Virus record (IMG/VR): IMGVR_UViG_3300028562_000004
Location: 1-45,042 of that record
Strand: one strand, 5' to 3'
Source: a virus
Length of the DNA stretch: 45,042 nt
This document shows, in pieces, positions 16,740 to 42,131 of the stretch (the first letter of the stretch is position 1; each line of letters starts with the position of its first letter). A program made the translations under genes and the position numbers. The notes under the pieces were generated by a model. That model saw nothing but the letters and a program-made list of their open reading frames with translations, had not been told where the DNA came from and made no database searches.

Positions 16740-19007
16740 TTACTGTTTCGTGATCGAGGCGCTGGCCCGTAGCTTGGCCAGGGTCGTCTCGTGTTTCTTG
16801 ACCGTGGCCACGATGCGGGCGGAGTCGGGATTGACCACGAGGCGACGTTTCGCCTGCACGATCAGGTTGAGGACGGAGCGGATTTCCTTGGACTGGTCTG
16901 GGATATACTTGCGTGTGGCCTTCTTGACCGCGGCGATGCGGCGTGCCTCGTCCTCAGGGTCCACCGTCTTGCTGTGACGCAGAGGGGTCAGGGTCGGCAC
17001 GCACCAGACCTTGAACGGCTCGCACTTGATCTTCTTGGCCAGGAGGTGGGCACCCGTCATGTACGGAACGATCATGAGGACGGGGCCCACACCATCGGGA
17101 TCACGCAGGTTGGTTCGGTACAGGGTCTGGACCAGGTTCTCGATCGAGTGGTCTTGGTCCACGTCGTACTTCGGGATCAGGCCAGCGTACACACGGATGA
17201 GACCAGGGTCCGGGTTCAGCGCTGCGAGGTGAGTGAACCCGCGTCGATTGCTGTACTTGTTGATGCCGTGAAGCTGCGGAGTCCGAGGCACGGTGAACAC
17301 CACCTCAGGCCGACCACTGAACAGGATGTTGCTCAATCGCTGTGGCCAGACGTCACCCATGCGGTCCGCCTCCTGCAGGGTCTCGGCGTCCTCGGCGTCG
17401 GAGCCTGAGTAGTCGTGGTTCCGCCCGTGCTTTGAGACGAAGTGTCCGTAGGCCACGATCCGGTAGATGATGCCCAGGTAGTGGATGCCGTTCGGCGCCC
17501 AGGTTCGACCGTGGGTCTCCTCGCCCTTGCGTGGAGCGTTCAGAGTCAGCAGTGACAGAGGGTGATACCCCATGTTCGGCTGCCCCTTGGACCAACCCAC
17601 GAAGATCTTGGCTGCCTGCCAGATTAGCACCCACAGAGGTGGCACCGTGAACTTCTTGAGCTCGGCCTCCAGCTCTGGATGAGCGGGCATCACATGCTTG
17701 TCCGCGGCCAACCGAGACAAGACTTCACCTATGGGCATCTGTGGGCTCAGCTTGCCTTGGATCTGGGCAGCGAGCTTGGTCGGGATCACCATGCCGAAGT
17801 CCAGAAGTGCTCGGGTCAGGTTGCGCTGAGTCGCCTCGCCGTCCATGTTGGTCGGGGGCTTGAGGAGTGGTGCCACGACCAGGCGTTTCGATGCCGCAGC
17901 CCGCAAGCGCGCATCCCGTTCGGAGATCGACTTGATAGATGGTGTGTCCTTCGACTTGGAGTGCTTCTGCAAGTCAATGAAGACGTGTCCGTCCTCCCTC
18001 AAGAAGTGGAACATCTGACTGTCTCGGAAGAACGCCGAGGTCAGGATCACACGACCGTAGCCATCGAACAGGCTCGTCGGCTTCTGGACCAGGTACAGGA
18101 GCACGTTCCGCTCGGCGCGGTCGATCATGTCCTCCGGGTTGAAGTTTGACAGCAGGAACATTGCACCCCGGCCTTCGGAGGCCGCAGCCTTCTCGAACTG
18201 GCTTCGGATGTCCCTGACCTGGGCAGGCAGCAGAGTGAGCGACGGCACCTGGAAGCGCTGCTTGAACTCGTCGGCGCTCTTGAGAGTGGCCACCTGGCCG
18301 AGGGTCCATTGTGACATGGTCAATCCCTTGAGCAGCGGCGTCGACTTGGCCTTCACAACCTCTATGTCCATGAGATCCAGCAACAGCAACCGCATGTACG
18401 AGTTCTTCAGCACCATGCGCTTCGATGACAGGACGCACTTGCGCGCCTCGTCGAAGATGATCTCCATCTTCTTGAGTAGGTCGAAGCTTGAGTCAGCCTC
18501 GTCGAACCTGCGGACCCGGACGAAGGACTCGTGGGTCGTCATGATGAGAGAGCCGAACGGGACCGGGCCCTCCAGGCTGTGGAAAAAGCCTCGCGTGTAC
18601 TTCCTGGACCTGTAGTCGTCGCGGCTGGTGATGCCGAACAGGTAGTTCAGTGCGAAGGATGGTGGGTCAGAGATGACCTGGTACTGGAGATGGCGAGTCT
18701 CATCCTTCTTTGGCTTGAACACCCGCTCCACCGAGTTTGGGTTCGCGACGACGAACGTGTTGGCGATGGCCCTGGCCTTGGCCCGCGCCCATGCCTTTGG
18801 CTTGAGATCCAACTCATCTTCAAGCCTGACCAACACGCGGGCGTAGGCCTCACGGATCAGGGCCACGGTCGGAGCGACGTAGACGAGGATGATCCTTGGG
18901 TCGTCGGTCATCAGTAGCTTGACCGCACGCGACACGAAGTACTCGGTCTTCCCCGCGCCGGGCATTGCGTCGATGTAGTAGAACTTCCTCTTCTTGATTT
19001 CTTCCAT
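16740..19007 (-). CDS. SF2-like helicase/ATPase, 755 aa
   Basis: Walker A MPGAGKT sits at residues 15-21, immediately after the start, as in phage origin-binding-type and DEAD-like helicases. Walker B is IIFDEAR, motif III-like LTSAFF, and a C-terminal QTLYRTNLR resembles motif VI (Q..R..R). The body is otherwise poorly conserved. First gene of the leftward arm, directly facing the structured 19.0-19.6 kb region, which fits a replication-initiation role (inference). The ATG at 19007 with GGAG nine bases before is preferred to the GTG at 19022. Confidence 0.7.
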   Translation of the reverse strand: MEEIKKRKFYYIDAMPGAGKTEYFVSRAVKLLMTDDPRIILVYVAPTVALIREAYARVLVRLEDELDLKPKAWARAKARAIANTFVVANPNSVERVFKPKKDETRHLQYQVISDPPSFALNYLFGITSRDDYRSRKYTRGFFHSLEGPVPFGSLIMTTHESFVRVRRFDEADSSFDLLKKMEIIFDEARKCVLSSKRMVLKNSYMRLLLLDLMDIEVVKAKSTPLLKGLTMSQWTLGQVATLKSADEFKQRFQVPSLTLLPAQVRDIRSQFEKAAASEGRGAMFLLSNFNPEDMIDRAERNVLLYLVQKPTSLFDGYGRVILTSAFFRDSQMFHFLREDGHVFIDLQKHSKSKDTPSIKSISERDARLRAAASKRLVVAPLLKPPTNMDGEATQRNLTRALLDFGMVIPTKLAAQIQGKLSPQMPIGEVLSRLAADKHVMPAHPELEAELKKFTVPPLWVLIWQAAKIFVGWSKGQPNMGYHPLSLLTLNAPRKGEETHGRTWAPNGIHYLGIIYRIVAYGHFVSKHGRNHDYSGSDAEDAETLQEADRMGDVWPQRLSNILFSGRPEVVFTVPRTPQLHGINKYSNRRGFTHLAALNPDPGLIRVYAGLIPKYDVDQDHSIENLVQTLYRTNLRDPDGVGPVLMIVPYMTGAHLLAKKIKCEPFKVWCVPTLTPLRHSKTVDPEDEARRIAAVKKATRKYIPDQSKEIRSVLNLIVQAKRRLVVNPDSARIVATVKKHETTLAKLRASASITKQ

Positions 19008-19080
19008 GATGGTGGTCTCCACTCGTTGCCCTGTCTTTAAGGTTTGTCATGATGGGCGGTTGAATCTATAAGCCGATCAT

Positions 19081-19223
19081 GGATGTATGTTTTGTGATGT
19101 AGGTTTGGGCTGTACACGATGATGACAAAGTACATCCTTCCAGGGGGTTTTATACGACCCCGAACCCCAAACATACATCCATCATCACCCTTTATATAAG
19201 ACCCTCATGTAGGATGTATGTTT
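19081..19223. repeat. Iterons GGATGTATGTTT (three copies)
   Basis: Exact 12-base copies at 19081-19092 and 19212-19223 on the plus strand, and an exact inverted copy (AAACATACATCC) at 19169-19180. The first and inverted copies extend to ATSATGGATGTATGTTT. Shorter relatives occur at 19097-19109 (GATGTAGGTTTGG) and 19461-19470. Pattern fits binding sites for an initiator or repressor. Confidence 0.7.
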
Positions 19224-19346
19224 GGCACGAGGCGCGAAGCGCCAAGTGTCGTCGGGTGGAGCGTCAGCGACACCCGACCCCGAATGACAGATGACACAGG
19301 GGCGCCAGCGTAGCCTGGCGGCTGGATGAGCGGAGCGAGTCCAGCC
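19224..19346. repeat. Array of four abutting hairpins with GNA/GNNA loops
   Basis: H1 19224-19250: GGCAC/GTGTC, a GA/AA internal loop, GGCGC-GAA-GCGCC. H2 19251-19278: GTCGGGTG/CACCCGAC, tandem GA/GA, GC-GTCA-GC. H3 19303-19320: CGCCAG/CTGGCG around CGTAGC. H4 19320-19346: GGCTGGA/TCCAGCC, T/G, tandem GA/GA, GC-GGA-GC. H1 abuts H2 and H3 abuts H4. GC-GNA-GC minihairpins are known to be unusually stable in single-stranded DNA. Confidence 0.75.
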
Positions 19347-19576: not shown

Positions 19577-20236
19577 ATGTCCGATCCCGCAATCATGGCC
19601 GCCAACAACACGATCCTCAACGCCAACGACTTCGACATCCAGCTCTTCGTCGTCGATGGCAACGGTGTGCCGACCCGTGAGCTCAAGGAGCTGGGCTCCC
19701 TGGTCTCCGACTGGGCCTACGTCCTGGCGCCGAATCCGTTCGAGGACGACGAGGAGACCGAGTACGACTTCGGTGAAGACGAGGAAGACGCCCTTAGCCT
19801 GGGCCTCGATCATCCCGACTCGGAGGCCGAGGAAGAAGACGCTGACGAGGAGGACAGCGGTGAAGTGGGAGACGAAGGCGTGGACGCCAGCCTCGAGCCG
19901 TACCGCGAACTCCAGCTGACCCACGCGATGACCGGCGCCGCCTTCCAAGAGGTGATGCACCATGTCTATCGTCGGAAAGAGCAGCCCGCGGTCTCGGTCT
20001 CTATCACCTACTACTCGGCCGTCGACGGTGTGCGCCACCCCATCTTCCGCCACATCTTCATGGGCGACATCTTCATGCGTGATGACCTCAGCGGTTCGCA
20101 CGCCGACAAGACCCGTCTCACTATGACCACGAACATGGACGTGTTCGGCTCGGAGACCTACGTCGACCCGACCGATGGCGTCGAGCAGGTGATGGCCCGT
20201 CTGGCACAGGAACACTCGGCATCGAGCGTCCACTGA
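19577..20236 (+). CDS. Hypothetical acidic protein, 219 aa
   Basis: First gene of the rightward arm, with its own GTAAATA box and CCAAGG ribosome-binding site. Residues 55-108 are extremely acidic (DDEETEYDFGEDEEDA, EEEDADEEDSGEVGDEG) and separate an N-terminal beta domain from a C-terminal domain (FQEVMHHVYRR, SVSITYYSAVDG, ADKTRLTMTTNMDVFGS). Acidic inserts can mimic DNA or bind basic partners. Not recognised; a structural or replication-accessory role cannot be separated. Confidence 0.6.
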   Translation: MSDPAIMAANNTILNANDFDIQLFVVDGNGVPTRELKELGSLVSDWAYVLAPNPFEDDEETEYDFGEDEEDALSLGLDHPDSEAEEEDADEEDSGEVGDEGVDASLEPYRELQLTHAMTGAAFQEVMHHVYRRKEQPAVSVSITYYSAVDGVRHPIFRHIFMGDIFMRDDLSGSHADKTRLTMTTNMDVFGSETYVDPTDGVEQVMARLAQEHSASSVH

Positions 20237-20237
20237 C

Positions 20238-21251
20238 ATGATCGTTTCAATCGGCGATCTCCACTTGACGGATTCCGTCGGCAAGGGCGGCCTCAGTGCT
20301 TACCTCGAAGAACCGGACGCGATGGTCGCCGATCTGGTGATCGACCAGCCGCTTAGGTACGCGCGCAAACATGGCGTCCGTGACATCGTGCTGCTCGGCG
20401 ATCTGTGCGAGAATCCTCGCATGAGCTATCAGGCGCAGCTCGCGCTGGACCGCATCATCAGCACACGGTACGACAGCAAGTCGCTGTTCCGGTTCCACAT
20501 CTACCCGGGCAACCACGACCTGTTCGACACGAACCCCGAAGCCGGTCACAGCCTCCAGGTGCTCGAGTTATGGAAGCGGCCGAACGTCGTGCTCTACACC
20601 GAGGTGACCGACGTTGAGATCGGGGGCCATCCGGTCCGCTTCCTGCCCTGGCCTCACCAGAACTTCCACAAGGGGCGTCTCAACTTCGCTCACGTCGACG
20701 TTCACGGCTCGAAGACTGACAGCGGTCGTCTCAACGACAAGGACGGCATGTCGACGTCCAAGGCGCACTGCGTGATCGGCCACATTCACACGATGCAGCG
20801 GATCAGGAACAGCTTCTACCCCGGCACCACGTACCAGACCAACTTCGGCGAGTCGGGGGACAAGTTCTTTGCCCACATCACCAACGACGACGGCTGGAAC
20901 GTGGAGATGGTTCCCATACGCCCGACGTACCGCCTTCATACCATCACCGTCGAGTCGAAGGCTGACCTGAAGTTGATCCCAGCTTCCCCTCAGGATCTGG
21001 TGAAGCTGATCATCAGAGGCAAGATCAATGCCAGCGACTACCAACATCTGACCGTGGTCAAGACGCTGGCCGTCAAATCTGAGGCCGAAGCAGCGCTGGC
21101 CCAGGTAGAGGAGCTGAGTCAGGGCTCGGCTGTCGAGGTTAGCACCGACGAGTTCTTCGAAAACTGGATGGCCGCCCAGTCCAAGCCACAAGAGCTGAAG
21201 GACAAGGCGACGGCCCTCCGCAAACGTCTTCTTCAAGGAGTTGCCAAATGA
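20238..21251 (+). CDS. Mre11/SbcD-type metallophosphoesterase, 337 aa
   Basis: Nuclease subunit of the SbcCD/gp46-gp47 type that processes DNA ends and hairpins. Metal ligands in order: D7 and H9 (GDLHL), D55 (LLGDL), N92-H93 (PGNHD), then H181-x-H183 region (IGHIHTM). Length matches T4 gp47 (339). Its usual ATPase partner (SbcC/gp46) is not visible in the window and may lie outside. ATG 20238 is one base after the previous stop, and the end overlaps the next gene (ATGATG). Location beside hairpin-rich DNA is notable because SbcCD enzymes cut hairpins. Confidence 0.88.
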   Translation: MIVSIGDLHLTDSVGKGGLSAYLEEPDAMVADLVIDQPLRYARKHGVRDIVLLGDLCENPRMSYQAQLALDRIISTRYDSKSLFRFHIYPGNHDLFDTNPEAGHSLQVLELWKRPNVVLYTEVTDVEIGGHPVRFLPWPHQNFHKGRLNFAHVDVHGSKTDSGRLNDKDGMSTSKAHCVIGHIHTMQRIRNSFYPGTTYQTNFGESGDKFFAHITNDDGWNVEMVPIRPTYRLHTITVESKADLKLIPASPQDLVKLIIRGKINASDYQHLTVVKTLAVKSEAEAALAQVEELSQGSAVEVSTDEFFENWMAAQSKPQELKDKATALRKRLLQGVAK

Positions 21252-23127: not shown

Positions 23128-26100
23128 ATGCTCAACAAGACCATCACCTACGACGACGGCAACCAGCGCAGCTGGAAGCTGACGTTCCCGATCGACAACG
23201 ATTGGGCCAACCAGAAGCGCCGGGTCCTCGTCATTCTGCAGTCGGTAGACGGGCGCGACATCAAGGCTGGAAAAATCCTTGGTGACCAAGGAGTCCGGAC
23301 GGCCTTCGTCGAGAGCTACAAGTACGCCCGACGCATCGCCAACCAGCACCTAGGCGACAAGGACCTCCGTGAGAACGGCCTGTGCGTTGTCAACCACCAA
23401 AGCTTCCGCCACTTGCACCTGAAGGGTACCCCGAAAGCCGAGGCCGAGTCGGAGTTCCGGGCCCGTACCCTCGCCATCATCAAGAAGCTGAACCCGACCC
23501 ACATCCTGTTCAGCGGCAATCTCAACGTCCTGTACCCGATGCCCTTCGCCCAGCTGAAGAACGGCTGGGTCCACAAGATCGACGGCCGAACCGTCACCTC
23601 GACGGTTGACTTTAGCCACCTGCTGGAGAAGCAGGGTCAGTACGCCAACCTCCTTGGCTTCTGGTGCCGCCACTTCGCAGCCCTGCTCACTGGTGAGACT
23701 CCACATTCGCTGGCCACGTTGGAGCCCAAGCCTCGGTACGTCAACACGATGGCCCGCTTTCGCGAGATGATGGCGGGCTTTGATCGCGCCAGTGAGGTGG
23801 CCTTGGACACCGAGGCGAAGAGCCTGGCCGTCAACAAGAATCCGGTCTACACCATGCAGATGGCGTTCGACCACACGCCCGATGTCGGGTACGTGCTGCC
23901 GATCGATCACCCGCATGAAAAGAACCCATTCACGCCCGAGGAACGGCTGATCATCAAGCGCGAGCTGCGCCGCCGCTTCGGCAACCCGAAGGCCAAGCAG
24001 CTCCTTATCACCTTCAACGGCATCTTCGACCTGCGCCTCATCCGCAAGAACCTGCGGCTGCCCATCATCTACATGCCGGTCTGGGAGTGCATGGCAGGCG
24101 AGCACTTGCTGGATGAGAATGCCTCGTCCCTCACCGGCATCGGGGTCAAGGAAGGTGGCATCAGCCCAAATGGACTGGCCGGCGTGCTGCTCCAGTACGG
24201 CAACGACTTCTACATCCGAGGCGACCTCACCTTTTCCAAGAAGGATCGCGAGACCGTTGGCTCGGTCGACCCTGGCGACAAGGGGTTCCTCAAGTACGCG
24301 TCGATGGACGTGGTCGGCCTCATCGGTATCAAGGCCAGCCAGCTTGCCCGCTCGCGCTTCCAGCACATCATGGGCAAGAGCTACACGCCGTTCTTCAAGG
24401 CGCACATGATGCACCAGATGAGCGACACGGTCCATCAGCTCAGTCACCTGAAGGAGGCCGGCTCGCTGGTCAACAAGCGATACCTGCGGTCGCTCATGCA
24501 GCCTGACTCGGTCCTCGCCAAAGCCATCAAGGAGCTGAACACCGAGTTCAAAGCCTTCCCCGAGGTACAAGAGGCGAACAAGCAACTGCTCGCCGAGTCC
24601 GGCTTCAAAGCCAAGGATCTGTTCTCCACCTTCGGCGCCGGTGCGGCCGCCAACGCCAAGAAGGGGAGCAAGCAATGGATGTTCAGCTTCAACAAGGCTG
24701 CCCACAAGATCAAGCTATTCCTCACGATCATGGGCCTGGAGGCGGTGGACACCACCGACACCGGAGCCCCGTCCATCAACAAGGCGTTCATCGAAACGTA
24801 CAAGGACCGCAACTTCCTGGTCGCCAAGTTCGGCGAGTACCAGCAGGCTACCAAGCTCCTCTCGACCTATGTCAAGGGCTGGTACAAGGTCATCAGCCGC
24901 ACGGTCGATGGCACGTACGATGATCACCTGAGGTCGGACGTCGTGTTCTTCCCGGTGGACACGGGTCGCCTTGCCTCGCGTAGTCCCAATCTGCAGAACA
25001 TCCCGGCCCGCGGCAAGCTCAGCAAGATCATCAAGGAAATGTTCATCGCGCCGGACGGGCACCTGCTGATCCGGTTCGACTACAACGCCCACGAAGTGCG
25101 TGGCTGGTCGATTGTCAGCGGCGACATGGCACTGGCGGAGACTTTCCGAATAGGACAGCAGCTACGACAGCAGTTCATAAAGCTTCACCCTTCAAGGCCG
25201 CTCGGTGAACGTCCCAAGACCGATGCCGAATTTGGTAAGCTCCCAAAGCGCGTACAGGCAACCTGGAAACTTATAGACCGATTGAAGAAAGAAGGCGATA
25301 GCCATATCAGAAATGTCTTTGTCTTCTTTGGTAAGTGGGTTGAGAAGAGTGATCCTTTGCGTGAGGCCATCAAGAAGGTTGTCTTTGGCACGTTGTACGG
25401 TAAGAGCGCCGAAACATTGGGCCACGATACCAAGGAAGCTGAACTCAATGTCCTTAAGGAAAAGATGGGTGTCGCCTACAAGGCGGGAGATAAGCTGGCC
25501 CTGGCCAAGCTCGAGATCCAGTACAAGAAGCTGATCGAGGCCGATCGTACTGCCTACGCGACTGGCATTATCGACAAGATGTTTGCCTCGTTTAAAGCTG
25601 GCAAGCGCTGGATCGACAAGATGAAGAAGCTGGCCGAGGACGAGCAGTACGTCTACAGCCCTATCGGTCGCATCCGGCACCTGTACGCCACCATGACCAA
25701 GGACAAGCAGATCGTCAACCGTCAGGTCCGCCGCGGCATGAACGCGCCTATCCAGGGCTTCGCCTCGGAGATCGCGGTCAAGGCCAGCCGTCTGGTCATG
25801 AGGAGCTACTACTTGAACCTCAAGCGAATCAAGGCCATCATGGACTACGACCTGAAGGCCAAGTTCGGCATCCGCTTCAACCGCATCGTCCACGATGCCT
25901 CGTACTTCACCGTGCCCTACGAGATGGTGCTGCCCTTCCTCCACATGCTCCAGTACGACATGACGTACGGGATCACCAAGGCTTACAAACAGCAGTTCGG
26001 CTTCGACTTCACGGTCGAGCCCGAGATCGAGATGGAAATCGGCGTCAAGGACACCGAGAGCCACAAGTGGGGATGGGCCCTGCCCGAACTGCTGGGCATC

Positions 26101-26370
26101 CTCGAGAAGGCTGTGGACAAGGGCATCGGTGACAAGCTCCTATCAGAGCCGAAGTCCGTCATCATGGGCAAGATCCTGGGCCCGTGGCGCAACGATGAGT
26201 GCCTAAAGCTGCTGAACGAGAAGTGGCCGCTGCTCAACGTTGACCTCGAGTCCGAGATCAAGGAGGCCCTGGCCGCCTACGATGTCGACACCGGGGCTCG
26301 GGCGAAGGCTGCTCGCGTGGCTGCCGCTGCTCTGAAGAAGGCCAGCACCAAGACCAAGGAGACCGCATGA
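23128..26370 (+). CDS. DNA polymerase I-type replicative polymerase with N-terminal UDG-like domain, 1080 aa
   Basis: Family A polymerase. Residues 30-185 resemble a degenerate uracil-DNA-glycosylase-like domain (VLVILQSVDGRDIKAG, VNHQSFR, HILFSGNLNVLYP) as described for SPO1-type polymerases. 3'-5' exonuclease: D227/E229 (LDTEA), N297/D301 (FNGIFDL), Y390/D394 (YASMD). Polymerase motif A FDYNAHEVRGW (D651), motif B about 745-765 (REAIKKVVFGTLYG), motif C IVHDASYF (D923, with Ala replacing the usual Glu of HDE). About 140 residues longer than E. coli Pol I. A tract around 25141-25500 is clearly lower in GC than the rest. Ends in an ATGA overlap. Confidence 0.93.
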   Translation: MLNKTITYDDGNQRSWKLTFPIDNDWANQKRRVLVILQSVDGRDIKAGKILGDQGVRTAFVESYKYARRIANQHLGDKDLRENGLCVVNHQSFRHLHLKGTPKAEAESEFRARTLAIIKKLNPTHILFSGNLNVLYPMPFAQLKNGWVHKIDGRTVTSTVDFSHLLEKQGQYANLLGFWCRHFAALLTGETPHSLATLEPKPRYVNTMARFREMMAGFDRASEVALDTEAKSLAVNKNPVYTMQMAFDHTPDVGYVLPIDHPHEKNPFTPEERLIIKRELRRRFGNPKAKQLLITFNGIFDLRLIRKNLRLPIIYMPVWECMAGEHLLDENASSLTGIGVKEGGISPNGLAGVLLQYGNDFYIRGDLTFSKKDRETVGSVDPGDKGFLKYASMDVVGLIGIKASQLARSRFQHIMGKSYTPFFKAHMMHQMSDTVHQLSHLKEAGSLVNKRYLRSLMQPDSVLAKAIKELNTEFKAFPEVQEANKQLLAESGFKAKDLFSTFGAGAAANAKKGSKQWMFSFNKAAHKIKLFLTIMGLEAVDTTDTGAPSINKAFIETYKDRNFLVAKFGEYQQATKLLSTYVKGWYKVISRTVDGTYDDHLRSDVVFFPVDTGRLASRSPNLQNIPARGKLSKIIKEMFIAPDGHLLIRFDYNAHEVRGWSIVSGDMALAETFRIGQQLRQQFIKLHPSRPLGERPKTDAEFGKLPKRVQATWKLIDRLKKEGDSHIRNVFVFFGKWVEKSDPLREAIKKVVFGTLYGKSAETLGHDTKEAELNVLKEKMGVAYKAGDKLALAKLEIQYKKLIEADRTAYATGIIDKMFASFKAGKRWIDKMKKLAEDEQYVYSPIGRIRHLYATMTKDKQIVNRQVRRGMNAPIQGFASEIAVKASRLVMRSYYLNLKRIKAIMDYDLKAKFGIRFNRIVHDASYFTVPYEMVLPFLHMLQYDMTYGITKAYKQQFGFDFTVEPEIEMEIGVKDTESHKWGWALPELLGILEKAVDKGIGDKLLSEPKSVIMGKILGPWRNDECLKLLNEKWPLLNVDLESEIKEALAAYDVDTGARAKAARVAAAALKKASTKTKETA

Positions 26371-27538: not shown

Positions 27539-28519
27539 ATGGACCAACGCAAGCTCGATCACGTGATCCAACAGCTGGACTACTTCGGCGGGCCCAAGAA
27601 GCGTCTCAACTCGGCTTCGACCTTCGTCGCCTGTCCTTTCCACAGCGAGCGCACCCCATCCTTCCGCGTCTTCCACAGTAGCACGAGCAACAGTCCGGGC
27701 TATGGAAAATGTTATGGCTGCGGTCAGGTCGCGACGTGGGACGAGCTGGCCCCAAAGCTCGGCCTCAAGCCCTACACCTGGGCCAAGCCTGTGACGCAGT
27801 ACGCGGCGCCACTGCGCGCGAAGGACGAGACGCCTGAAGAGGCGGTGCTCAAGTTCAGCCCCATCCCCAAGGGCAAGGTCTGGCGCCAGATCAAGACCAA
27901 CTTCCTGGTCAGCCTAGGGTGCAAGAAGGTACGGGTCCTGTACGATGGGTTCAGGCCGGGCCCCGTCATGCTCTACTTTCCCGTCATGATCAAGGGCGAG
28001 GAGCGCGGCTATATACGGGCACGGCTCAAGAAGGTGGATGGCAAGCCCTCGTACCTGAACAAGAGCGGTGGCTGGTCCAAGGACTACGGTCTGTTCCTTT
28101 ATGACCAGGCCGTGGCCCTCATGCATGAGAAGGGGATCAAGACGCTGGTCCTGGTCGAGGGCCCACGTGACGCCCTTCGGCTGATGAGCCTGGGCATCCC
28201 TGCCATCGCCATCCTTGGCACCCAGTCCTGGTCCAAGCGCAAGAGCCGCATGATCGAGCTGACGGGCGCGCGCCGGGTTGTCCTATGCATGGATGGCGAC
28301 GACGCAGGACTGGCCGCCATCGAGTTGATCAAGCCACTGCTTGTCGACTACGTGCGAGTCCGCACATTCAGCCTCACGGGCCCCGACAGCCCGTACTGGC
28401 GCTACCGCAACGAAGACGAGCCAACCAAAGCCATGAAGGCGGCTGGTTCTGAGGGCTGGGATCCTGGCAACATGCCACTGAAGAAGGTCAAGGAGTTGAA
28501 AGCTCTAATCGGCCTCTAA
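27539..28519 (+). CDS. DnaG-type DNA primase, 326 aa
   Basis: Synthesises RNA primers for the lagging strand. The zinc-binding module has C32, H35, C58 and C61 (CPFH...CYGC), as in the CHC2 zinc finger. The Toprim domain carries the conserved glutamate E207 (LVLVEGPRDAL) and the DGDDAG acidic pair D252/D254. It is shorter than bacterial DnaG (about 580) and lacks a helicase-interaction domain, so it resembles compact phage primases. No strong ribosome-binding site precedes ATG 27539. Confidence 0.88.
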   Translation: MDQRKLDHVIQQLDYFGGPKKRLNSASTFVACPFHSERTPSFRVFHSSTSNSPGYGKCYGCGQVATWDELAPKLGLKPYTWAKPVTQYAAPLRAKDETPEEAVLKFSPIPKGKVWRQIKTNFLVSLGCKKVRVLYDGFRPGPVMLYFPVMIKGEERGYIRARLKKVDGKPSYLNKSGGWSKDYGLFLYDQAVALMHEKGIKTLVLVEGPRDALRLMSLGIPAIAILGTQSWSKRKSRMIELTGARRVVLCMDGDDAGLAAIELIKPLLVDYVRVRTFSLTGPDSPYWRYRNEDEPTKAMKAAGSEGWDPGNMPLKKVKELKALIGL

Positions 28520-28534
28520 ACAACCGGAGTTAAT

Positions 28535-29614
28535 ATGAGCAAGATCAAGACCGCAGAAGAGCTGACGGTGGACAACCTGATCTGCCGGCACTACGCAGGC
28601 AGCCGGTCCTACGGCACGAGCCTGCCGACCAGCGACGTGGACATCCGGGGCCTGTTCGTGGCCGACCCGATCCACGTCCGCACCCCATTCTTCCCAATCC
28701 GCGAGGCCAATCTCGCTGCCGAGCAGGACACCGTCCTGTACGAGCTGAGCCAGTTCATGGACTTGGCGCTGAAGTGCAACCCGAACGTGATCGAGACGCT
28801 ATGGGTCGACCAGAGTGACGTCATCGTCGACAGCCCGGCCTACCAGATGCTTCGCGCCGCTGCACCGCTGCTCCTTAGCAAGAAGATCGCCTTCACGACG
28901 AGCGGCTACGCCCTGTCGCAGCTGAAGCGCATCAAGGGCCACAACCGCTGGATCGCCAACCCGCAGCCAGAGCGCCGGCCACAGGAGCGCGATCACGTGT
29001 CCATGATCCATAACTTCACGACCACCAAGATCTTGAAGTTCAACATCGAGGACTGGAACGAGGGTCACCGTCTCGTACCCTTTGGCCACAACGTGTTCGG
29101 CCTGTACAAATTCGAAGGTGAGCGCCGCTGCGACCAACCCCATCGCCTGTACGACGGCGTTGGTGTCCTGATCACCGACTATGACGGCAAGGTCCACGAG
29201 CTCCCGGCTCCTCTGATGCTGGTCCAGTTCCACAAGCAGCAACACGACGAGGCGTCCACCGTCTGGGAGAACTACTGGCGCTGGAAGCGTGAGCGCAATG
29301 CCACACGCTCGGCGTTGGAAGAGGCCCACGGCTACGACACGAAGCATGCTATGCACCTGGTCCGCCTGCTTCGTATGGGCGCCGAAGCATTGGAGACCGG
29401 CGTGGTCAACGTGCGGCGTGCCGACGCCGAGGAACTCCTGGCCATCCGCAACGGTAAGTGGACCTACAACGAGGTGGTCCAGTACGCGGACCACATGGAT
29501 GCCCACATCCAACAGTCGCTTTATCCAAAGAGCGATCTTCGCAAGGCCCCAGACATCAAGATGGCCGCCCGTCTGATGCTTGAAATCCAGGACATGATGT
29601 GGAGCCGGACATGA
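28535..29614 (+). CDS. Predicted nucleotidyltransferase (RlaP/YcgL-like), 359 aa
   Basis: Polymerase-beta-superfamily signature at residues 21-40: AGSRSYGT then SDVDIRG (catalytic D34 and D36). The C-terminal KHAMHLVRLLRMGAEALETG is the characteristic helical part of this family. Homologues are often linked to RNA ligases in repair cassettes (established association); no RNA ligase is seen here. Substrate unknown. CGGAG precedes ATG 28535. Confidence 0.8.
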   Translation: MSKIKTAEELTVDNLICRHYAGSRSYGTSLPTSDVDIRGLFVADPIHVRTPFFPIREANLAAEQDTVLYELSQFMDLALKCNPNVIETLWVDQSDVIVDSPAYQMLRAAAPLLLSKKIAFTTSGYALSQLKRIKGHNRWIANPQPERRPQERDHVSMIHNFTTTKILKFNIEDWNEGHRLVPFGHNVFGLYKFEGERRCDQPHRLYDGVGVLITDYDGKVHELPAPLMLVQFHKQQHDEASTVWENYWRWKRERNATRSALEEAHGYDTKHAMHLVRLLRMGAEALETGVVNVRRADAEELLAIRNGKWTYNEVVQYADHMDAHIQQSLYPKSDLRKAPDIKMAARLMLEIQDMMWSRT

Positions 29615-32370: not shown

Positions 32371-32565
32371 ATGGCTGGACAAAGACTCGAATACACCATC
32401 GTCTGGGCCAGTTGGCTCGACGAGCTGGCATCTGCTGTTAACGACCACATCTCCCGTGGTTGGGAGCCACTAGGCGGCCCTGGCACCACCCCTGATCCTG
32501 AGAGCTACGACGTCTTTCAAGCACTGACCCGAAAGGTCCCCGATGAAAACGCAAACGCAAGCTGA
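32371..32565 (+). CDS. DUF1737-like small protein, 64 aa
   Basis: Pattern EYTIVWASWLDELASAVNDHISRGWEPLGG...VFQALTRK matches the DUF1737 family found in phages and bacteria; function unknown. AGGAGCCGAC precedes ATG 32371. Overlaps the next gene by 23 bases. Confidence 0.65.
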   Translation: MAGQRLEYTIVWASWLDELASAVNDHISRGWEPLGGPGTTPDPESYDVFQALTRKVPDENANAS

Positions 32566-33535
32566 GCTGGTCCCCGCATTCGAAGGTCTCTGCTGCGACT
32601 GGACGAGCACCAAGTACAAGGATCGCCTGCGCGCCGCCGCCCGCTTCTGCGCCGAGCGCCACATGATCTACGTGCGTCGACGTGAGGGACAACCATCCCC
32701 ATGGACGAAGGATCCGATCCTTCGTTCGTCCAGGTTTTGCAACGTGTATAGAGAAATCGACAAGGTTACTCTTGAGATCATGGATCAGTGGCTGAAGCCG
32801 CAGCTGACAGGAAACAACCCGGCCATCGCTGCGCTGGTCGGCCGCGTCATCAATCATCCTCCAACATTGAATGCTATGAGGGCCGTTGGAATCGATTTCC
32901 GTGTTGGCAGTGGCCAAGCCAAAGCATGGAAGCTGTTCCAGTCTATCGTGGTCAAGAAAGGCAAAGAGGGGAAATTGGTTACGGGCGCTTACGTCGTGAA
33001 CACCGTCTTCCCTCGTCATCATGAAAAGATCACTGGGTCGAAGGCTGACTACCTTGCAAACTTCTTCTTGCCGGAGGTATGGTCACATAGGGAACAGCTG
33101 GACGAAGCCCTGAGCGCCGGCACCTACCGAGGGATGCTCGACGCGTACCGCAAGGTTCACGGCGTCGGCCTCTTCATCGCGAACCAGGCAGCATGTGACC
33201 TGACGTACACCAGTCTTCTGCGCAAGGCCAAGGACATCAACGAAATTTGGTCGCCGGGTCCCGGGACTGCGGCTGGTATCCGCCGCATCGTCAATGACTA
33301 CAGCCTTGCACAAGGCTCAGTCGCAATGGACAAGGTGCTTACGCAGTACGCACAGGATCTGAATCACGAGTTGTCACATCACCGGCTCTGGTCCACGTCA
33401 ACCAAGGACATGCACACGCACCTAGTACCCTTGTCGAATCCTAACGCGAGCTCTAGCTTGTGCGAAATCTCCAAGCACTTTGGGATGGCTATGGGCGAAC
33501 GGGATCGGTTGAAGAACAGCTACAAGGCGAGCTGA
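32543..33535 (+). CDS. Helical DNA hypermodification-family protein (HMUDK_hel / alpha-GPT-PPlase superfamily), 330 aa
   Basis: Residues 38-80 show ERHMIYVRRREGQPSPW, then TKDPIL..SRFCNVYREIDKVT, the hallmark of the helical domain shared by phage 5-hydroxymethyl-dU DNA kinases and alpha-glutamyl/putrescinyl-thymine pyrophosphorylase-type enzymes. In phages such as phiW-14 and SP10 these proteins activate 5-hmdU in DNA and attach an amino acid or polyamine (established). There is no P-loop in this protein, but an APS-kinase-like P-loop protein lies at 40378. All-helical throughout; length is typical. Exact step (kinase partner or amino acid:DNA transferase) cannot be decided by eye. Confidence 0.72.
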   Translation: MKTQTQAELVPAFEGLCCDWTSTKYKDRLRAAARFCAERHMIYVRRREGQPSPWTKDPILRSSRFCNVYREIDKVTLEIMDQWLKPQLTGNNPAIAALVGRVINHPPTLNAMRAVGIDFRVGSGQAKAWKLFQSIVVKKGKEGKLVTGAYVVNTVFPRHHEKITGSKADYLANFFLPEVWSHREQLDEALSAGTYRGMLDAYRKVHGVGLFIANQAACDLTYTSLLRKAKDINEIWSPGPGTAAGIRRIVNDYSLAQGSVAMDKVLTQYAQDLNHELSHHRLWSTSTKDMHTHLVPLSNPNASSSLCEISKHFGMAMGERDRLKNSYKAS

Positions 33536-37554: not shown

Positions 37555-38706
37555 ATGAAAATCGCCGTTATCGGCGCCGGCTTCTACGGCGCGACCCTAG
37601 CCCGTCTCGTTGCCGAAGCCGGGCACGAAGTCATGGTCTACGAGGCGGAGTCGTCGATCGGTGGCAACGCCAAGTCCCACTTCGATCCTAGGATCGGCAC
37701 TCATGTCTCGGACTACGGTGCCCACATATTCCACACGAACAGCGACCGCGTGTGGGACTTCGTGTCTCGCTTCGCCACCTTCAACGGCTACCGGCATTAC
37801 GTCAAGGGTTGGACTGGTACGAAGATGGTGGACCTGCCGTTCAACCTCAGCCTCTTCTCCCAGGTCCTGGGTATCACCACGCCTGCCGAGGCCCACACCT
37901 ACTTCAACCGCCTGGCCAGCCTCCAGAAAGAGAGCTATCGGCACGACGTGTCGACGGTCGAGGGCTGGTGTCTGGCCAACATCGGACCCGACCTCTACGA
38001 GACGGTGGTCAAGGACTACACGGAGAAGCAGTGGGGGCGTGCCTGCTCCGACCTCCCGGCCTCGATCATCCAGCGCCTCCCGATCCGTTTCACGTACGAC
38101 AACACGTACTTCCACAATGCGAAGTACCAGGGGATGCCTCTCAACGGTTACTCCAACATCATGGAGCAGATACTGAACCATCCATCCATCGTGGTGGTCA
38201 AGGACGCCGACGTTGGGCTTACCAATCTCTCGCTGATCGAAAAGAACGTCGACCGCGTGTTCTTCTCGGGTCCGGTCGACCGTCTATTCTCCTACGAAGA
38301 GGGTGTTCTGTCGTACAGGGGTCTTCGCTTTGAAGACGTCCTCGTCCCAAAGAGCGCGTCGCAAGGGGCGCCGGTGATCAACAACGTCGGTCGTGTAGTT
38401 CCTGGCATCGCACGGAGTGGCAGTACTCGAACCATCGAGCACAGTCTGTTCTACCCTGAGGCCCGCACCGAGAACCAGACGCGCACGCTGCTGACCCGCG
38501 AGTACCCAGCTCAGTGGGCACCTGGTGACAGGCCGTACTATCCGATCCGTGACGAGCAGAATCTTGCCCTGCACGAGCGGTACACCAAATTGTTGGATCA
38601 TCACCACCCGAAGGTCCGCCTCGGTGGACGCCTCGGGACCTATATGTACCTGGACATCGATCAAGCGGTTGGGCAGGCGATGTCCCACGCCAAGGAATTC
38701 CAATGA
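37555..38706 (+). CDS. glf: UDP-galactopyranose mutase, 383 aa
   Basis: Flavoenzyme converting UDP-galactopyranose to UDP-galactofuranose. FAD-binding IGAGFYGA at the N-terminus, then DYGAHIFHT, FNLSLFSQV, YTEKQWG, FTYDNTYFHNAKYQGMP, all characteristic of UGM; the C-terminus has the flavin/substrate region LGGRLGTYMYLDID. Full length (E. coli Glf is 367). Overlaps the sulfotransferase by four bases, so they form one transcription unit. Indicates that the phage makes a galactofuranose-containing product, on DNA, virion protein or host glycan. Confidence 0.92.
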   Translation: MKIAVIGAGFYGATLARLVAEAGHEVMVYEAESSIGGNAKSHFDPRIGTHVSDYGAHIFHTNSDRVWDFVSRFATFNGYRHYVKGWTGTKMVDLPFNLSLFSQVLGITTPAEAHTYFNRLASLQKESYRHDVSTVEGWCLANIGPDLYETVVKDYTEKQWGRACSDLPASIIQRLPIRFTYDNTYFHNAKYQGMPLNGYSNIMEQILNHPSIVVVKDADVGLTNLSLIEKNVDRVFFSGPVDRLFSYEEGVLSYRGLRFEDVLVPKSASQGAPVINNVGRVVPGIARSGSTRTIEHSLFYPEARTENQTRTLLTREYPAQWAPGDRPYYPIRDEQNLALHERYTKLLDHHHPKVRLGGRLGTYMYLDIDQAVGQAMSHAKEFQ

Positions 38707-39491
38707 TCATCAGCCAACGCCACGAGCTGGCTTTCGTACACAACCCTAAAGTGGGCGGCACGTCCATCCGCCAAGCCATCGGCCACCTCCACGACGGGCC
38801 CATCCCGTTCTGGCACCAGGACTGGGACCCGAACAGCGATCGCGTCGTCGATCTGGCCCATCTCACGGTCGACCAGTGGGACGACCCCGATGTGATCCCG
38901 GCCAACTACTTCACGTTCGGCTTCGTGCGGAACCCGTACACACGCTTCTGGTCGGCATTGAACGAATTCCTGCGCCGGCACGGCCAGTACATGCCGATCA
39001 CCAAGGATAACATCTCCATGATGCTGACGCCGGCCAACATCCGGTACGACTGGCGCTTCGTCCACTTCTGTCCGCAGCACGCGTTCTTCTACCAGGGCAA
39101 CCGCTGCCGCGTTGACTTCATCGGTCGTCAGGAACGGATGGAGCGCGACTGGGCTGCCGTCGCCGCGTTGACCGGCAACGTGATGCCAGCAGCGCTGCCC
39201 GAAGAGAAGGCCCGCGCCACCACGGCCGATCTGTACGACCCGGACCTCAAAGACCAGGCGTTTGTCCAGAATCTGATCAACCGGCTGTATCTCAAGGACT
39301 TCCAGCTGTTCGGTTATGACATGGTCGGCAACCTCGGCATCCGTGACGTACACGCTGATCGCATCGAAGTGATTCACAATCCGCTCCTCGTGCCGTGGTT
39401 CCACGGTCAAGAGCTCGGCGCCCTCTCATTCACGCCTGGTGAACGCAAGTCCCTGGAGGCACAACGTGCAACTATTCATCCTCAGTCGTGA
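38703..39491 (+). CDS. PAPS-dependent sulfotransferase, 262 aa
   Basis: Transfers sulfate from PAPS to a hydroxyl, usually of a carbohydrate. The 5'-phosphosulfate loop is FVHNPKVGGTSI at 11-22 and the 3'-phosphate-binding motif is FVRNPYTRFWSAL at about 74-86, with VDFIGRQERMERDW later, as in sulfotransferase-2-type enzymes. Such genes are uncommon in phages. Adjacent to UDP-galactopyranose mutase upstream and a glycosyltransferase downstream, so the acceptor is probably the same sugar. ATGA overlap with the mutase stop. Confidence 0.82.
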   Translation: MIISQRHELAFVHNPKVGGTSIRQAIGHLHDGPIPFWHQDWDPNSDRVVDLAHLTVDQWDDPDVIPANYFTFGFVRNPYTRFWSALNEFLRRHGQYMPITKDNISMMLTPANIRYDWRFVHFCPQHAFFYQGNRCRVDFIGRQERMERDWAAVAALTGNVMPAALPEEKARATTADLYDPDLKDQAFVQNLINRLYLKDFQLFGYDMVGNLGIRDVHADRIEVIHNPLLVPWFHGQELGALSFTPGERKSLEAQRATIHPQS

Positions 39492-40377: not shown

Positions 40378-40986
40378 ATGCACAACGGATTCAGCGGCAC
40401 GTCGGCAGACGATCTGCCACCCAAAAGCCCCAGCCACGCTGGCCAAGAACGAATGCATGTGACGACCACTGTCATGGCTCCGGCCATCGTGATCCGCGGT
40501 CTTCCAGGCGTTGGCAAGACTACGCTGGCAAACGAGATCGTCCGTCAATTGAGGCGCGGTAGCTGCTCGATCGTCTACCCAGCATTCCACATCAACGCCG
40601 ACGTGGTGCGGGCCAGGCTCAACAGCGACCTGGGCTTCAGTCCCGCTGCCAGAGTGGAAAACGCACGCCGTATTGGCGCCGTGGCGGCAATGGCCCGTAT
40701 CAACGTCTGCGCACCTGTCATCGACTTCGTCATGCCTACCGGCGAGACGCTCGATGCGTTCACCGATGGCTTCGGCGGGAAGGAGTTCTCTGTCTTCACG
40801 CTGAACGGGCCTGCCGATTTCGAGACCCGCTTCGCCGACACCGGCAAGTTGTTCGAGACCGACCCCGTGACTCGTAGTACAAGGCACGGCCCAGCCGACC
40901 ATCGTCAGTTCTACTCCCTCCAACCCTTCGGCCGCGGCGATGTTCAACTCATCGCTGAGACCATCATCCAGCAGGTGTTCAAATGA
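40378..40986 (+). CDS. APS-kinase-like P-loop kinase, 202 aa
   Basis: Walker A GLPGVGKT at 41-48. The sequence HINADVVRARLNSDLGFS (71-88), then RVENARRIGAVAAMARI, closely follows APS kinase (CysC: DGDNVR..LN.DLGFS..DR.EN.RR...VA). The C-terminal half differs from CysC. Two readings: it makes PAPS for the sulfotransferase two genes upstream, or it is a base/nucleotide kinase of the 5-hmdU type feeding the enzyme at 32543. The N-terminal 33 residues are an extra flexible tail. GGAGG precedes ATG 40378; overlaps the next gene as ATGA. Confidence 0.8.
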   Translation: MHNGFSGTSADDLPPKSPSHAGQERMHVTTTVMAPAIVIRGLPGVGKTTLANEIVRQLRRGSCSIVYPAFHINADVVRARLNSDLGFSPAARVENARRIGAVAAMARINVCAPVIDFVMPTGETLDAFTDGFGGKEFSVFTLNGPADFETRFADTGKLFETDPVTRSTRHGPADHRQFYSLQPFGRGDVQLIAETIIQQVFK

Positions 40987-42131
40987 GCCAAGCTACCGTT
41001 CTCGCCATCGCCCCGACCTCCGGTGCCGATTCCGCCCTCCGCCAAGCTGTCGAGATGGCGATCCAAGGTCGTCACACGATCGACATGCCGAGCCGCAACG
41101 GCCCGGTGCGCCGCTTCAACCGCCCGGTCGTCACGTGCTGGACCAACCCGGTGGATCGCATCGTCTGGTCGAAGACGCGCGACGTCAACCCGTTTCTGCA
41201 CTTCATCGAAGCGGCGTGGATGCTTGCCGGCCGCAACGACGTGGAACTCGCGGCGTACCTCGCCCCGAACATGAAGAACTACAGCGACGACGGCGAGACG
41301 CTGCACGGTGCCTACGGCTTCCGTTGGCGCGAGTGGTTCGGCTTCGATCAGCTGACGGCCCTGATCGGCGAGCTGAAGTCCAACCGCGAGACCAGGCGCT
41401 GCGTCCTGCAGATGTGGGACGGCCACGACGATCTGGGCACTGCGCTCAAGGGAGGACGCGATCTTCCTTGCAATACCGCGATCTACTTCGATCCGTGCGG
41501 CGACGAGCTGAACATGACTGTGACCTGCCGCAGTAACGACGCGGTCTGGGGCTGCTACGGCGCCAACGTGGTCCACATGTCGATCCTCCACGAGTACGTG
41601 GCGGCCGTCACCGGCTTCAAGCTCGGCACCTACTACCAGATGTCGAACAACCTCCACTTCTACCTGGAAAACGATGTCACGAAGCGGGTGATGGACTACG
41701 AGAACGCGGACAACGACGTGCTCTCCAAGTGGGACCCGACGAACGCTGAGCAGCTCGGCAGTCCAGCCTTCCTCACCAGCTACGGATTCCCGGCATTCGG
41801 CGGCGAAACGCTGTTCCATGATCTGAACCCCGACCTCAGCGACGAGGTACTGGCTGACGCGCTGAACGACGCGTGCTCCACCTTCGTGGGCAAGGAGCTG
41901 GTCGGCATCAGCGACGGCGAGACCCACTACTTCAACGTCCTGCACGCGATGATGGACGGCTTCACCATCTACAGGACGCAGGGTGCGAACGCCGGCGCCG
42001 AGTACCTCGAGAGCTGTATGGTCCACAGCCAGTGGATCCTGTCGGCCATCCTGTGGCTCAAGCGTCGTCCCAGCTACAAGGTGCCCGTGACCAGTGACAC
42101 GAGCGGCAACCAGCCTGTGACGGGGGCGTGA
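40983..42131 (+). CDS. Thymidylate-synthase-fold enzyme, candidate dUMP hydroxymethylase, 382 aa
   Basis: Nucleotide-binding and catalytic parts are recognisable: RFNRP...DRIVWSKTRDVNPF, LHGAYGFRWR, the catalytic cysteine C163 in DLPCNT, RSND (R183, S184, D186) and a GAN Asn (N195) that would read the pyrimidine as uracil rather than cytosine. LPCN in place of the LPPCH of classic ThyA occurs in pyrimidine hydroxymethylases. Longer than ThyA (264) with inserts and a C-terminal extension. Predicted to make 5-hydroxymethyl-dUMP or dTMP; the former fits the modification genes nearby but is inference. Confidence 0.82.
   Translation: MSQATVLAIAPTSGADSALRQAVEMAIQGRHTIDMPSRNGPVRRFNRPVVTCWTNPVDRIVWSKTRDVNPFLHFIEAAWMLAGRNDVELAAYLAPNMKNYSDDGETLHGAYGFRWREWFGFDQLTALIGELKSNRETRRCVLQMWDGHDDLGTALKGGRDLPCNTAIYFDPCGDELNMTVTCRSNDAVWGCYGANVVHMSILHEYVAAVTGFKLGTYYQMSNNLHFYLENDVTKRVMDYENADNDVLSKWDPTNAEQLGSPAFLTSYGFPAFGGETLFHDLNPDLSDEVLADALNDACSTFVGKELVGISDGETHYFNVLHAMMDGFTIYRTQGANAGAEYLESCMVHSQWILSAILWLKRRPSYKVPVTSDTSGNQPVTGA

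What the first reader, a model, noticed from the sequence alone, without database searches (positions are those of the whole stretch)
19224..19346. Four abutting hairpins capped by GNA or GNNA minihairpins
H1-H4 have different stems, yet all end in GC-G(N)NA-GC-like caps (GAA, GTCA, GTA, GGA), and two carry symmetric tandem GA/GA mismatches just below. Stem sequences differ while the cap is conserved, which points to selection on structure. GC-GNA-GC loops are extraordinarily stable in single-stranded DNA and are used in phage N4 single-stranded promoters and some origins. Here they sit at the strand switch next to a helicase gene.
Basis: partly seen in the sequence, partly recalled or inferred. 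Interest (0 to 1): 0.75.

Follow-up and report, generated by a model that had tools for sequence, protein, structure and literature searches.

The report
Conserved hairpin array beside phage helicase
A giant-phage genome carries a row of small DNA hairpins with an unusually stable tip next to a helicase gene; unrelated hairpins with the same tip sit beside the same helicase gene in many distant giant phages, so the array is real and selected, and it looks most like the place where the phage starts copying its DNA.

Summary
Four + strand hairpins (19224-19346) are capped GC-GAA-GC, GA-GC-GTCA-GC-GA, GC-GTA-GC and GA-GC-GGA-GC-GA, and this is the densest such cluster in the window. The window is a fragment of a jumbo phage related to BcepSauron/BcepSaruman and Motura. 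The strand-switch helicase beside the array belongs to a family (PHROG 2467) found in at least 14 other jumbo-phage-like genomes. In 16 of 18 noncoding regions at this helicase there are hairpins with GN(N)A loops: 41 seen, 3.5 expected, shuffle maximum 9. Every other loop class is near background, and other intergenic regions of BcepSauron show no excess. Stems differ completely between lineages. BcepSauron has two paralogous helicases, each with its own array; one homologous hairpin has swapped a GCGA for a GAA loop, and Sauron/Saruman show one compensatory stem change. Caps occur on both strands (18:23 relative to the helicase), often as ++ -- arrays, usually near a 10-22 bp inverted repeat around an AT-richer core. 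N4-type promoters are unlikely: no vRNAP gene was found and half the triloops have a pyrimidine centre. Best explanation (about 0.5): a helicase-linked, single-strand-structured replication initiation site. GC-skew evidence is mixed; no function was tested.

The parts
16740..19022 (-). SF2 helicase gene (760 aa; DEAR box, PHROG 2467), the conserved neighbour of the array
   Evidence: Pfam DEAD 1.9e-6; phrog_2467 in 11 of 11 family members; homologous over N- and C-terminal parts to BcepSaruman DEAD helicase; model resembles XPD/DinG helicases weakly
19081..19094 (+). iteron-like repeat GGATGTATGTTTTG
   Evidence: one of only 4 matches (up to 3 mismatches) to GGATGTATGTTTGG in the 45 kb window, all in this intergenic region; the count alone is not above chance (14 of 100 shuffles)
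19095..19108 (+). iteron-like repeat TGATGTAGGTTTGG, in tandem with the previous one (14-bp spacing)
19167..19180 (-). left arm of perfect 14-bp inverted repeat (CCAAACATACATCC on +)
   Evidence: best inverted repeat of the intergenic region, score 14, largest of 10 shuffles 9
19181..19211 (.). core between the arms, 65% A+T, contains TTTATATAA: candidate melting element (function inferred)
19212..19225 (+). right arm of the inverted repeat (GGATGTATGTTTGG), overlaps the first two bases of H1
19224..19250 (+). H1: GGCAC[ga]GGCGC(GAA)GCGCC[aa]GTGTC
19251..19278 (+). H2: GTCGGGTG[ga]GC(GTCA)GC[ga]CACCCGAC
19303..19320 (+). H3: CGCCAGC(GTA)GC[c]TGGCG
19320..19346 (+). H4: GGCTGGAT[ga]GC(GGA)GC[ga]GTCCAGCC
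19577..20236 (+). acidic protein of unknown function (219 aa), first gene of the rightward unit
   Evidence: no family and no match in phages
20238..21251 (+). SbcD-like nuclease subunit
   Evidence: phrog_100 3.3e-32; about 40-41% identical to BcepSaruman/BcepSauron/Motura
23128..26370 (+). family A DNA polymerase with 3'-5' exonuclease
27539..28519 (+). DnaG-type primase (zinc ribbon + Toprim)

Best explanation
The array is the single-strand-structured part of a replication initiation site that belongs with the adjacent SF2 helicase. Proposed working: (1) an initiator binds the repeats and inverted repeat (19081-19108, 19167-19225) and, with negative supercoiling, opens the AT-richer core; (2) the exposed strand folds into hairpins whose GC-G(N)NA-GC tips, with sheared G-A pairs, resist being melted and coated by SSB; (3) the tips and purine-mismatch collars, not the stem sequence, are the recognition feature on which the adjacent helicase (and then the phage primase) is loaded; (4) forks leave along the two divergent gene blocks. 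Shown here: the hairpins, cap conservation across lineages, linkage to one helicase family, use of both strands, and inverted repeats. Inferred: melting, ssDNA extrusion, helicase/primase recognition and origin activity.
For: (a) Noncoding regions at this helicase in 17 loci (18 regions): 41 GN(N)A-capped hairpins against 3.5 in shuffles (max 9 of 100), in 16 of 18 regions against 3.0 (max 7); other loop classes 3-9; 4.3 per kb against 0.65 per kb genome-wide. In BcepSauron, 25 other intergenic regions (8.0 kb) hold 5, the two helicase regions (1.1 kb) hold 7. (b) In whole-genome scans the top cluster is this locus in the window, BcepSauron (both top clusters) and Xhv12; it ranks second in the probable RSL1 genome. 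(c) Two BcepSauron-type helicase paralogues (38% identical), each with an array; a homologous hairpin carries GCGA in one array and GAA in the other. (d) Saruman/Sauron: T-A to G-C compensatory change, loops GCA/GTA and GCGA/GTGA. (e) Caps on both strands, 18 and 23 relative to the helicase, with ++ -- arrays in BcepSauron, the probable RSL1 and L073. (f) Inverted repeats beating all shuffles tried in the window, BcepSauron (both), Saruman, Xhv12, Motura, L021, L022, L023 and L028. (g) The locus sits at a GC-skew turn in the window, three close contigs, the probable RSL1 and BcepSauron. (h) Polymerase, primase, SbcD and Dda-like helicase genes lie close by.
Against: No origin activity was measured. 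GC skew is a maximum at most of these loci, which by bacterial convention would mark a terminus; it is near a minimum at BcepSauron cluster 1, and Motura and Xhv12 give no clear turn there. Skew is confounded with gene direction in the window. All four window hairpins are on one strand, unlike the symmetric arrays. BcepSauron has a second array at its convergent strand switch. No known initiator domain was found in the helicase, and distant helicase relatives in bacterial contigs lack clustered hairpins upstream.
Confidence: 0.5

Rival explanations
1. Replication terminus, fork barrier, genome-end or recombination site: the hairpins are cruciform or ssDNA structures where forks stop, or a substrate for the phage SbcCD-like nuclease or resolvases.
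For: The array is at a cumulative GC-skew maximum in the window, G002-G004, the probable RSL1 and BcepSauron cluster 2, the last at the convergent switch. The sbcD gene lies close to the array in the window and appears to in three close contigs.
Against: BcepSauron cluster 1 and the window lie at divergent switches; sbcD is not always adjacent (Motura, Xhv12). Opposing forks would not explain the tight linkage to one helicase gene or the inverted repeat with core.
Confidence: 0.17
2. RNA-level element: a structured leader of the rightward (acidic protein/SbcD) transcript or a small RNA, with GNA and tandem GA motifs folding in RNA.
For: In the window all caps are on the strand that would be the leader of the acidic protein gene. 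Tandem GA pairs are also stable in RNA (general knowledge).
Against: Caps occur on both strands (18:23), with ++ -- symmetry. No Rfam match even at E of 1. In BcepSauron a promoter-like site reads away from the array on the side of the divergent gene, and a plausible one lies between array and helicase (read by eye), so the array may be untranscribed. GNA triloop stability is a DNA property in the literature found.
Confidence: 0.12
3. Single-stranded hairpin promoters as in phage N4, read by an unknown phage or virion RNA polymerase.
For: The cap GC-GRA-GC is the N4 promoter loop, where G and A form a sheared pair and stems are largely free as long as they pair. Arrays stand at divergent gene starts.
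Against: No N4 mini-vRNAP homologue in 10 related records while N4 itself was found; no CDS long enough for an N4-type 3500-aa vRNAP in annotated BcepSauron or Motura. 18 of 36 triloops have a pyrimidine centre and 5 loops are tetraloops; N4 needs a purine at -11. BcepSauron cluster 2 has caps on both strands between co-directional genes.
Confidence: 0.08
4. Selfish or mobile DNA: REP-like or MITE-like hairpin repeats that spread next to the helicase gene.
For: BcepSauron's two arrays share sequence (GGGAATGCGTGTCGCT...), so they derive from one another or a common source.
Against: No further clusters elsewhere in the genomes; stems are unrelated between lineages, whereas mobile repeats keep sequence; each array goes with its own helicase paralogue.
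Confidence: 0.05

Closest known systems
Phage N4 early promoters (extruded hairpins read by virion RNA polymerase; PMC4496689)
   Same: GC-G-N-A-GC tip with a sheared G-A pair, stem sequence largely free, sits at regulatory sites; supercoil-driven extrusion is established there
   Different: No vRNAP gene found; loops include GTA, GCA and GNNA; several hairpins in arrays on both strands; linked to a helicase gene and inverted repeats rather than to early transcription starts
RSF1010 ssiA/ssiB single-strand initiation sites and RepB' primase (PMC4434180)
   Same: ssDNA hairpins, one per strand, in a replication origin; BcepSauron, L073 and probable-RSL1 arrays also use both strands in opposed order
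   Different: Several hairpins per array, conserved tip rather than conserved 40-nt sequence; phage primase is DnaG-like; the window has all four on one strand; no priming activity shown
Iteron-type theta origins of plasmids and phages (general knowledge)
   Same: repeats in tandem and inverted order, AT-richer core, gene for a replication protein next door, strand switch
   Different: no Rep/DnaA-type initiator recognised; hairpin array is an extra element
d(GCGNAGC) extraordinarily stable DNA minihairpins (in vitro literature, found through)
   Same: identical tip sequence
   Different: described there as synthetic oligonucleotides, not as a conserved genomic array

Membership tests
N4-type ssDNA hairpin promoter | encoded N4-like virion RNA polymerase | tested here: not met
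   mini-vRNAP (1106 aa) against 10 related records: no match; N4 control found. The window's own genome is incomplete (a 52 kb overlapping contig was searched)
N4-type ssDNA hairpin promoter | three-base loop G-purine-A closed by GC pairs | tested here: not met
   window loops GAA, GTCA, GTA, GGA; over all loci 18 of 36 triloops have a pyrimidine centre; purine need from PMC4496689
N4-type ssDNA hairpin promoter | transcription starts a fixed distance from the hairpin | not testable with these tools
   needs RNA 5'-end mapping
RSF1010-type ssi origin | hairpin initiation site on each strand, opposed | tested here: inconclusive
   met in BcepSauron, L073 and probable RSL1 (++ --), not met in the window (all four on +)
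RSF1010-type ssi origin | RepB'-type archaeo-eukaryotic primase | tested here: inconclusive
   the window primase is DnaG-like (zinc ribbon + Toprim); not every window gene was scanned and the genome is a fragment
RSF1010-type ssi origin | priming on ssDNA carrying the site | not testable with these tools
   biochemistry needed
Iteron-type theta origin | repeated initiator sites flanking an AT-rich melting region | tested here: met
   14-bp perfect inverted repeat around a 65% A+T core plus two further copies in tandem; initiator binding not shown
Iteron-type theta origin | replication-strand skew turns at the site | tested here: inconclusive
   turn present in the window clade, probable RSL1 and BcepSauron, sign not uniform; unclear in Motura and Xhv12
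Iteron-type theta origin | replication starts there | not testable with these tools
   needs read-depth or nascent-strand mapping

The most novel reading that the evidence does not exclude
An undescribed kind of phage replication start: a dedicated SF2 helicase paired with an array of ssDNA hairpins read by their GC-G(N)NA-GC tips rather than by sequence, shared by jumbo phages of Burkholderia, Achromobacter, Xanthomonas, Erwinia and probably Ralstonia and duplicated as a module in Sarumanvirus.
Probability: 0.4. Interest if true: 0.82.

Novelty: new variant of a known kind. Interest (0 to 1): 0.7.

Why it matters
Where and how these jumbo phages start copying their DNA appears undescribed in the papers I could search. 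A recurrent helicase-plus-hairpin module gives a precise, testable candidate in culturable phages (BcepSauron, Motura, PhiXhv). It would also be a natural case in which the very stable d(GCGNAGC) tip, known mainly from synthetic DNA and N4 promoters, is kept by selection while stems drift freely, i.e. recognition of a DNA shape instead of a sequence.

Tried and rejected
Chance in GC-rich DNA: rejected by shuffles, loop-class controls and other intergenic regions. Known RNA family or riboswitch: no Rfam match. Terminators: no T tracts, none found in the window region. tRNA: none. N4-like promoter: no vRNAP. DNA-level relatives for direct covariation of H1-H4: none apart from an identical contig. 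Whole-genome GC skew as proof of an origin: mixed signs. Helicase as a UL9-like origin-binding protein: no Pfam Herpes_ori_bp hit; fold search gives XPD/DinG-like SF2 helicases with low TM-scores (about 0.33) from a pLDDT 71 model, so the subfamily is uncertain. Bacterial-genome relatives of the helicase (Belnapia, Hyphomicrobiales MAG) have no clustered caps upstream. An apparent three-cap cluster in the probable RSL1 genome at 5.6 kb looks like coding sequence and was taken as chance.

Full report
CHECKING THE OBSERVATION. The sequence at 19224-19346 (+) holds the four hairpins as described: H1 GGCAC[ga]GGCGC(GAA)GCGCC[aa]GTGTC, H2 GTCGGGTG[ga]GC(GTCA)GC[ga]CACCCGAC, H3 CGCCAGC(GTA)GC[c]TGGCG, H4 GGCTGGAT[ga]GC(GGA)GC[ga]GTCCAGCC. 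They form two touching pairs with a 24-nt gap between H2 and H3. Single-strand DNA folding forms all four and each folds alone, although the predicted H3 fold opens the tip to a 6-nt loop. An automatic scan of the window and its 16.6 kb continuation for G(N)NA-capped hairpins returns this place as the top cluster.

WHAT GENOME THIS IS. The window is a 45 kb virus record; an overlapping 52 kb contig (IMGVR_UViG_3300029954_000016) is identical over the stretches compared. Its DNA polymerase is 42-45% identical to those of Achromobacter phage Motura and Burkholderia phages BcepSauron/BcepSaruman, its SbcD-like protein about 40-41%: it is a fragment of a jumbo phage. The gene left of the array is an SF2 helicase (PF00270, PHROG 2467), the genes to the right are an acidic protein and SbcD, followed by polymerase and a DnaG-like primase. 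Genes point away from the array on both sides (inferred) and the cumulative GC skew has its maximum there.

THE SAME THING IN RELATIVES. In BcepSauron the homologous helicase (the near-identical Saruman protein is 23-28% identical to the window protein by segments) also has a large upstream intergenic region at the strand switch, with hairpins CGTGC(GCA)GCACG and GCATGGA[ga]GC(GCA)GC[ga]TCCATGC on one strand and GCGTG[ga]GC(GCGA)GC[ga]CACGC and GGGC(GCA)GCCC on the other. A scan of the whole 262 kb genome finds just one other cluster, upstream of a second helicase that is 38% identical to the Saruman form of the first. The two arrays share sequence, yet one homologous hairpin carries a GCGA loop in one and GAA in the other. 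BcepSaruman has one compensatory stem change (T-A to G-C) and loop changes GCA to GTA and GCGA to GTGA, all at N positions; one neighbouring pair became A.G.

Searching with helicase alignments gave further loci: L020-L022 (40-42% identical, same sbcD / acidic protein / array / helicase order as far as ORFs show), L023, L025, L026, L028, L029, L073, L074, and L087, whose 231,255-bp length suggests Ralstonia phage RSL1 (name from memory, not verified by a tool). All have G(N)NA-capped hairpins in the noncoding DNA beside the helicase. L073 has the array about 1 kb downstream of the helicase instead of upstream, as a near-perfect mirror: +TCGCC(GAA)GGCGA, +AAGGGTG[gga]GC(GAA)GC[gaa]CACCCTT, a 22-bp inverted repeat around a pyrimidine-rich core, then -GGTGACGA[gga]GC(GAA)GC[gaa]TCGTCACC and -CGCC(GAA)GGCG. 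In PhiXhv-16/Ep032 the strict test finds none, though by eye there is an AATGG..GGCC(GGA)GGCC..CCATT hairpin.

STATISTICS. Over 18 noncoding regions (9.6 kb), hairpins with a GN(N)A loop on two G/C closing pairs and further stem number 41, against a shuffle mean of 3.5 and maximum of 9 in 100; 16 of 18 regions have at least one against 3.0 (maximum 7). Other loop classes number 3-9, near the shuffled values computed for four of them. A stricter earlier test on 13 regions gave 17 against 2.2, maximum 8. The genome-wide density is 0.65 per kb against 4.3 per kb here. Twenty-five other BcepSauron intergenic regions show no GNA excess (5 in 8.0 kb, against 7 in the 1.1 kb of the two helicase regions). 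Of about 18 exact GAGCGNAGCGA sites in the records searched plus the window, 9 are in these helicase regions (my tally). The regions were chosen by the helicase, not by the hairpins, except the window itself (4 of 41) and the displaced L073 region (3 of 41), which was found through its caps.

OTHER CONSERVED PARTS. Most regions carry a 10-15 bp inverted repeat (22 bp in L073) around a core of about 20-55 bp (longer in L073), with lineage-specific sequence but near-perfectly matching arms. In the window it is CCAAACATACATCC-31-GGATGTATGTTTGG with a core containing TTTATATAA, plus two further copies in tandem; the probable RSL1 has GGTTTATGTACC..GGTACATAAACC with a third copy at the helicase start. 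Inverted repeats better than every shuffle tried were found in the window, BcepSauron 1 and 2, Saruman, Xhv12, Motura, L021, L022, L023 and L028; not in L020, L029, L026 or Xhv16 (only ten shuffles each).

HOW IT MOST LIKELY WORKS. The conserved features are tip and mismatch collar, single-strand polarity (a GNA loop on one strand is TNC on the other), use of both strands (18:23), frequent ++ -- layout, repeats with an AT-richer core, and linkage to one helicase family, kept even when the helicase is duplicated. This fits a replication initiation site in which repeats position an initiator, the core opens, and the exposed strands fold into hairpins that guide loading of the helicase and primase. 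In the ++ -- layout, synthesis on each hairpin strand would run outwards. Each of these steps is inference. The GC-skew turn agrees in position, but its sign varies: a maximum in the window clade, probable RSL1 and BcepSauron 2, near the minimum at BcepSauron 1, and no clear turn in Motura or Xhv12. A terminus or barrier therefore remains the main rival.

WHY NOT N4 PROMOTERS. N4 vRNAP reads a G-purine-A loop on extruded template hairpins (PMC4496689). The mini-vRNAP has no homologue in ten related records, half of the triloops here have a pyrimidine centre and five loops are tetraloops. The resemblance of the tip is real, but membership fails two tested features.

NOVELTY. Papers found describe GNA minihairpins as oligonucleotides and N4 promoters, RSF1010 ssi hairpins, and none a hairpin array at a jumbo-phage helicase (open-access full text only, titles and abstracts read). 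I rate it a new variant of a known kind: structure-read single-stranded DNA control sites.

Noticed in passing
window 32543-33535 and 40983-42131: 5-hmdU DNA kinase helical-domain protein (PF18723, 1.7e-31) together with a thymidylate-synthase-like gene: the phage may carry hypermodified thymine in its DNA.
   Followed up: no
window 37555-38706 and 38703-39491: UDP-galactopyranose mutase (PF03275) directly followed by a sulfotransferase (PF03567): unusual sugar-modifying genes for a phage.
   Followed up: no
window 28535-29614: RlaP family (RNA repair pathway nucleotidyltransferase-like) gene next to the primase.
   Followed up: no
L014 35909-36319 (BcepSauron 235.9-236.3 kb): BcepSauron has a second helicase paralogue with its own array at the convergent strand switch, where cumulative GC skew peaks; the first is near the skew minimum, so the two modules lie almost opposite each other on the map.
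   Followed up: partly
L073 5740-6744: An ORF of about 335 aa, GIY-YIG-like by eye, lies between the helicase and the displaced array; it may have separated them.
   Followed up: no
L016 and L017 (PhiXhv-12, PhiXhv-16): Repeats TGTTAGAAATCGAACTCCTAAAG and GATTTTACTGTAACG..TGGCGTGTCTA recur in these intergenic regions, perhaps further iteron-like or promoter repeats.
   Followed up: no
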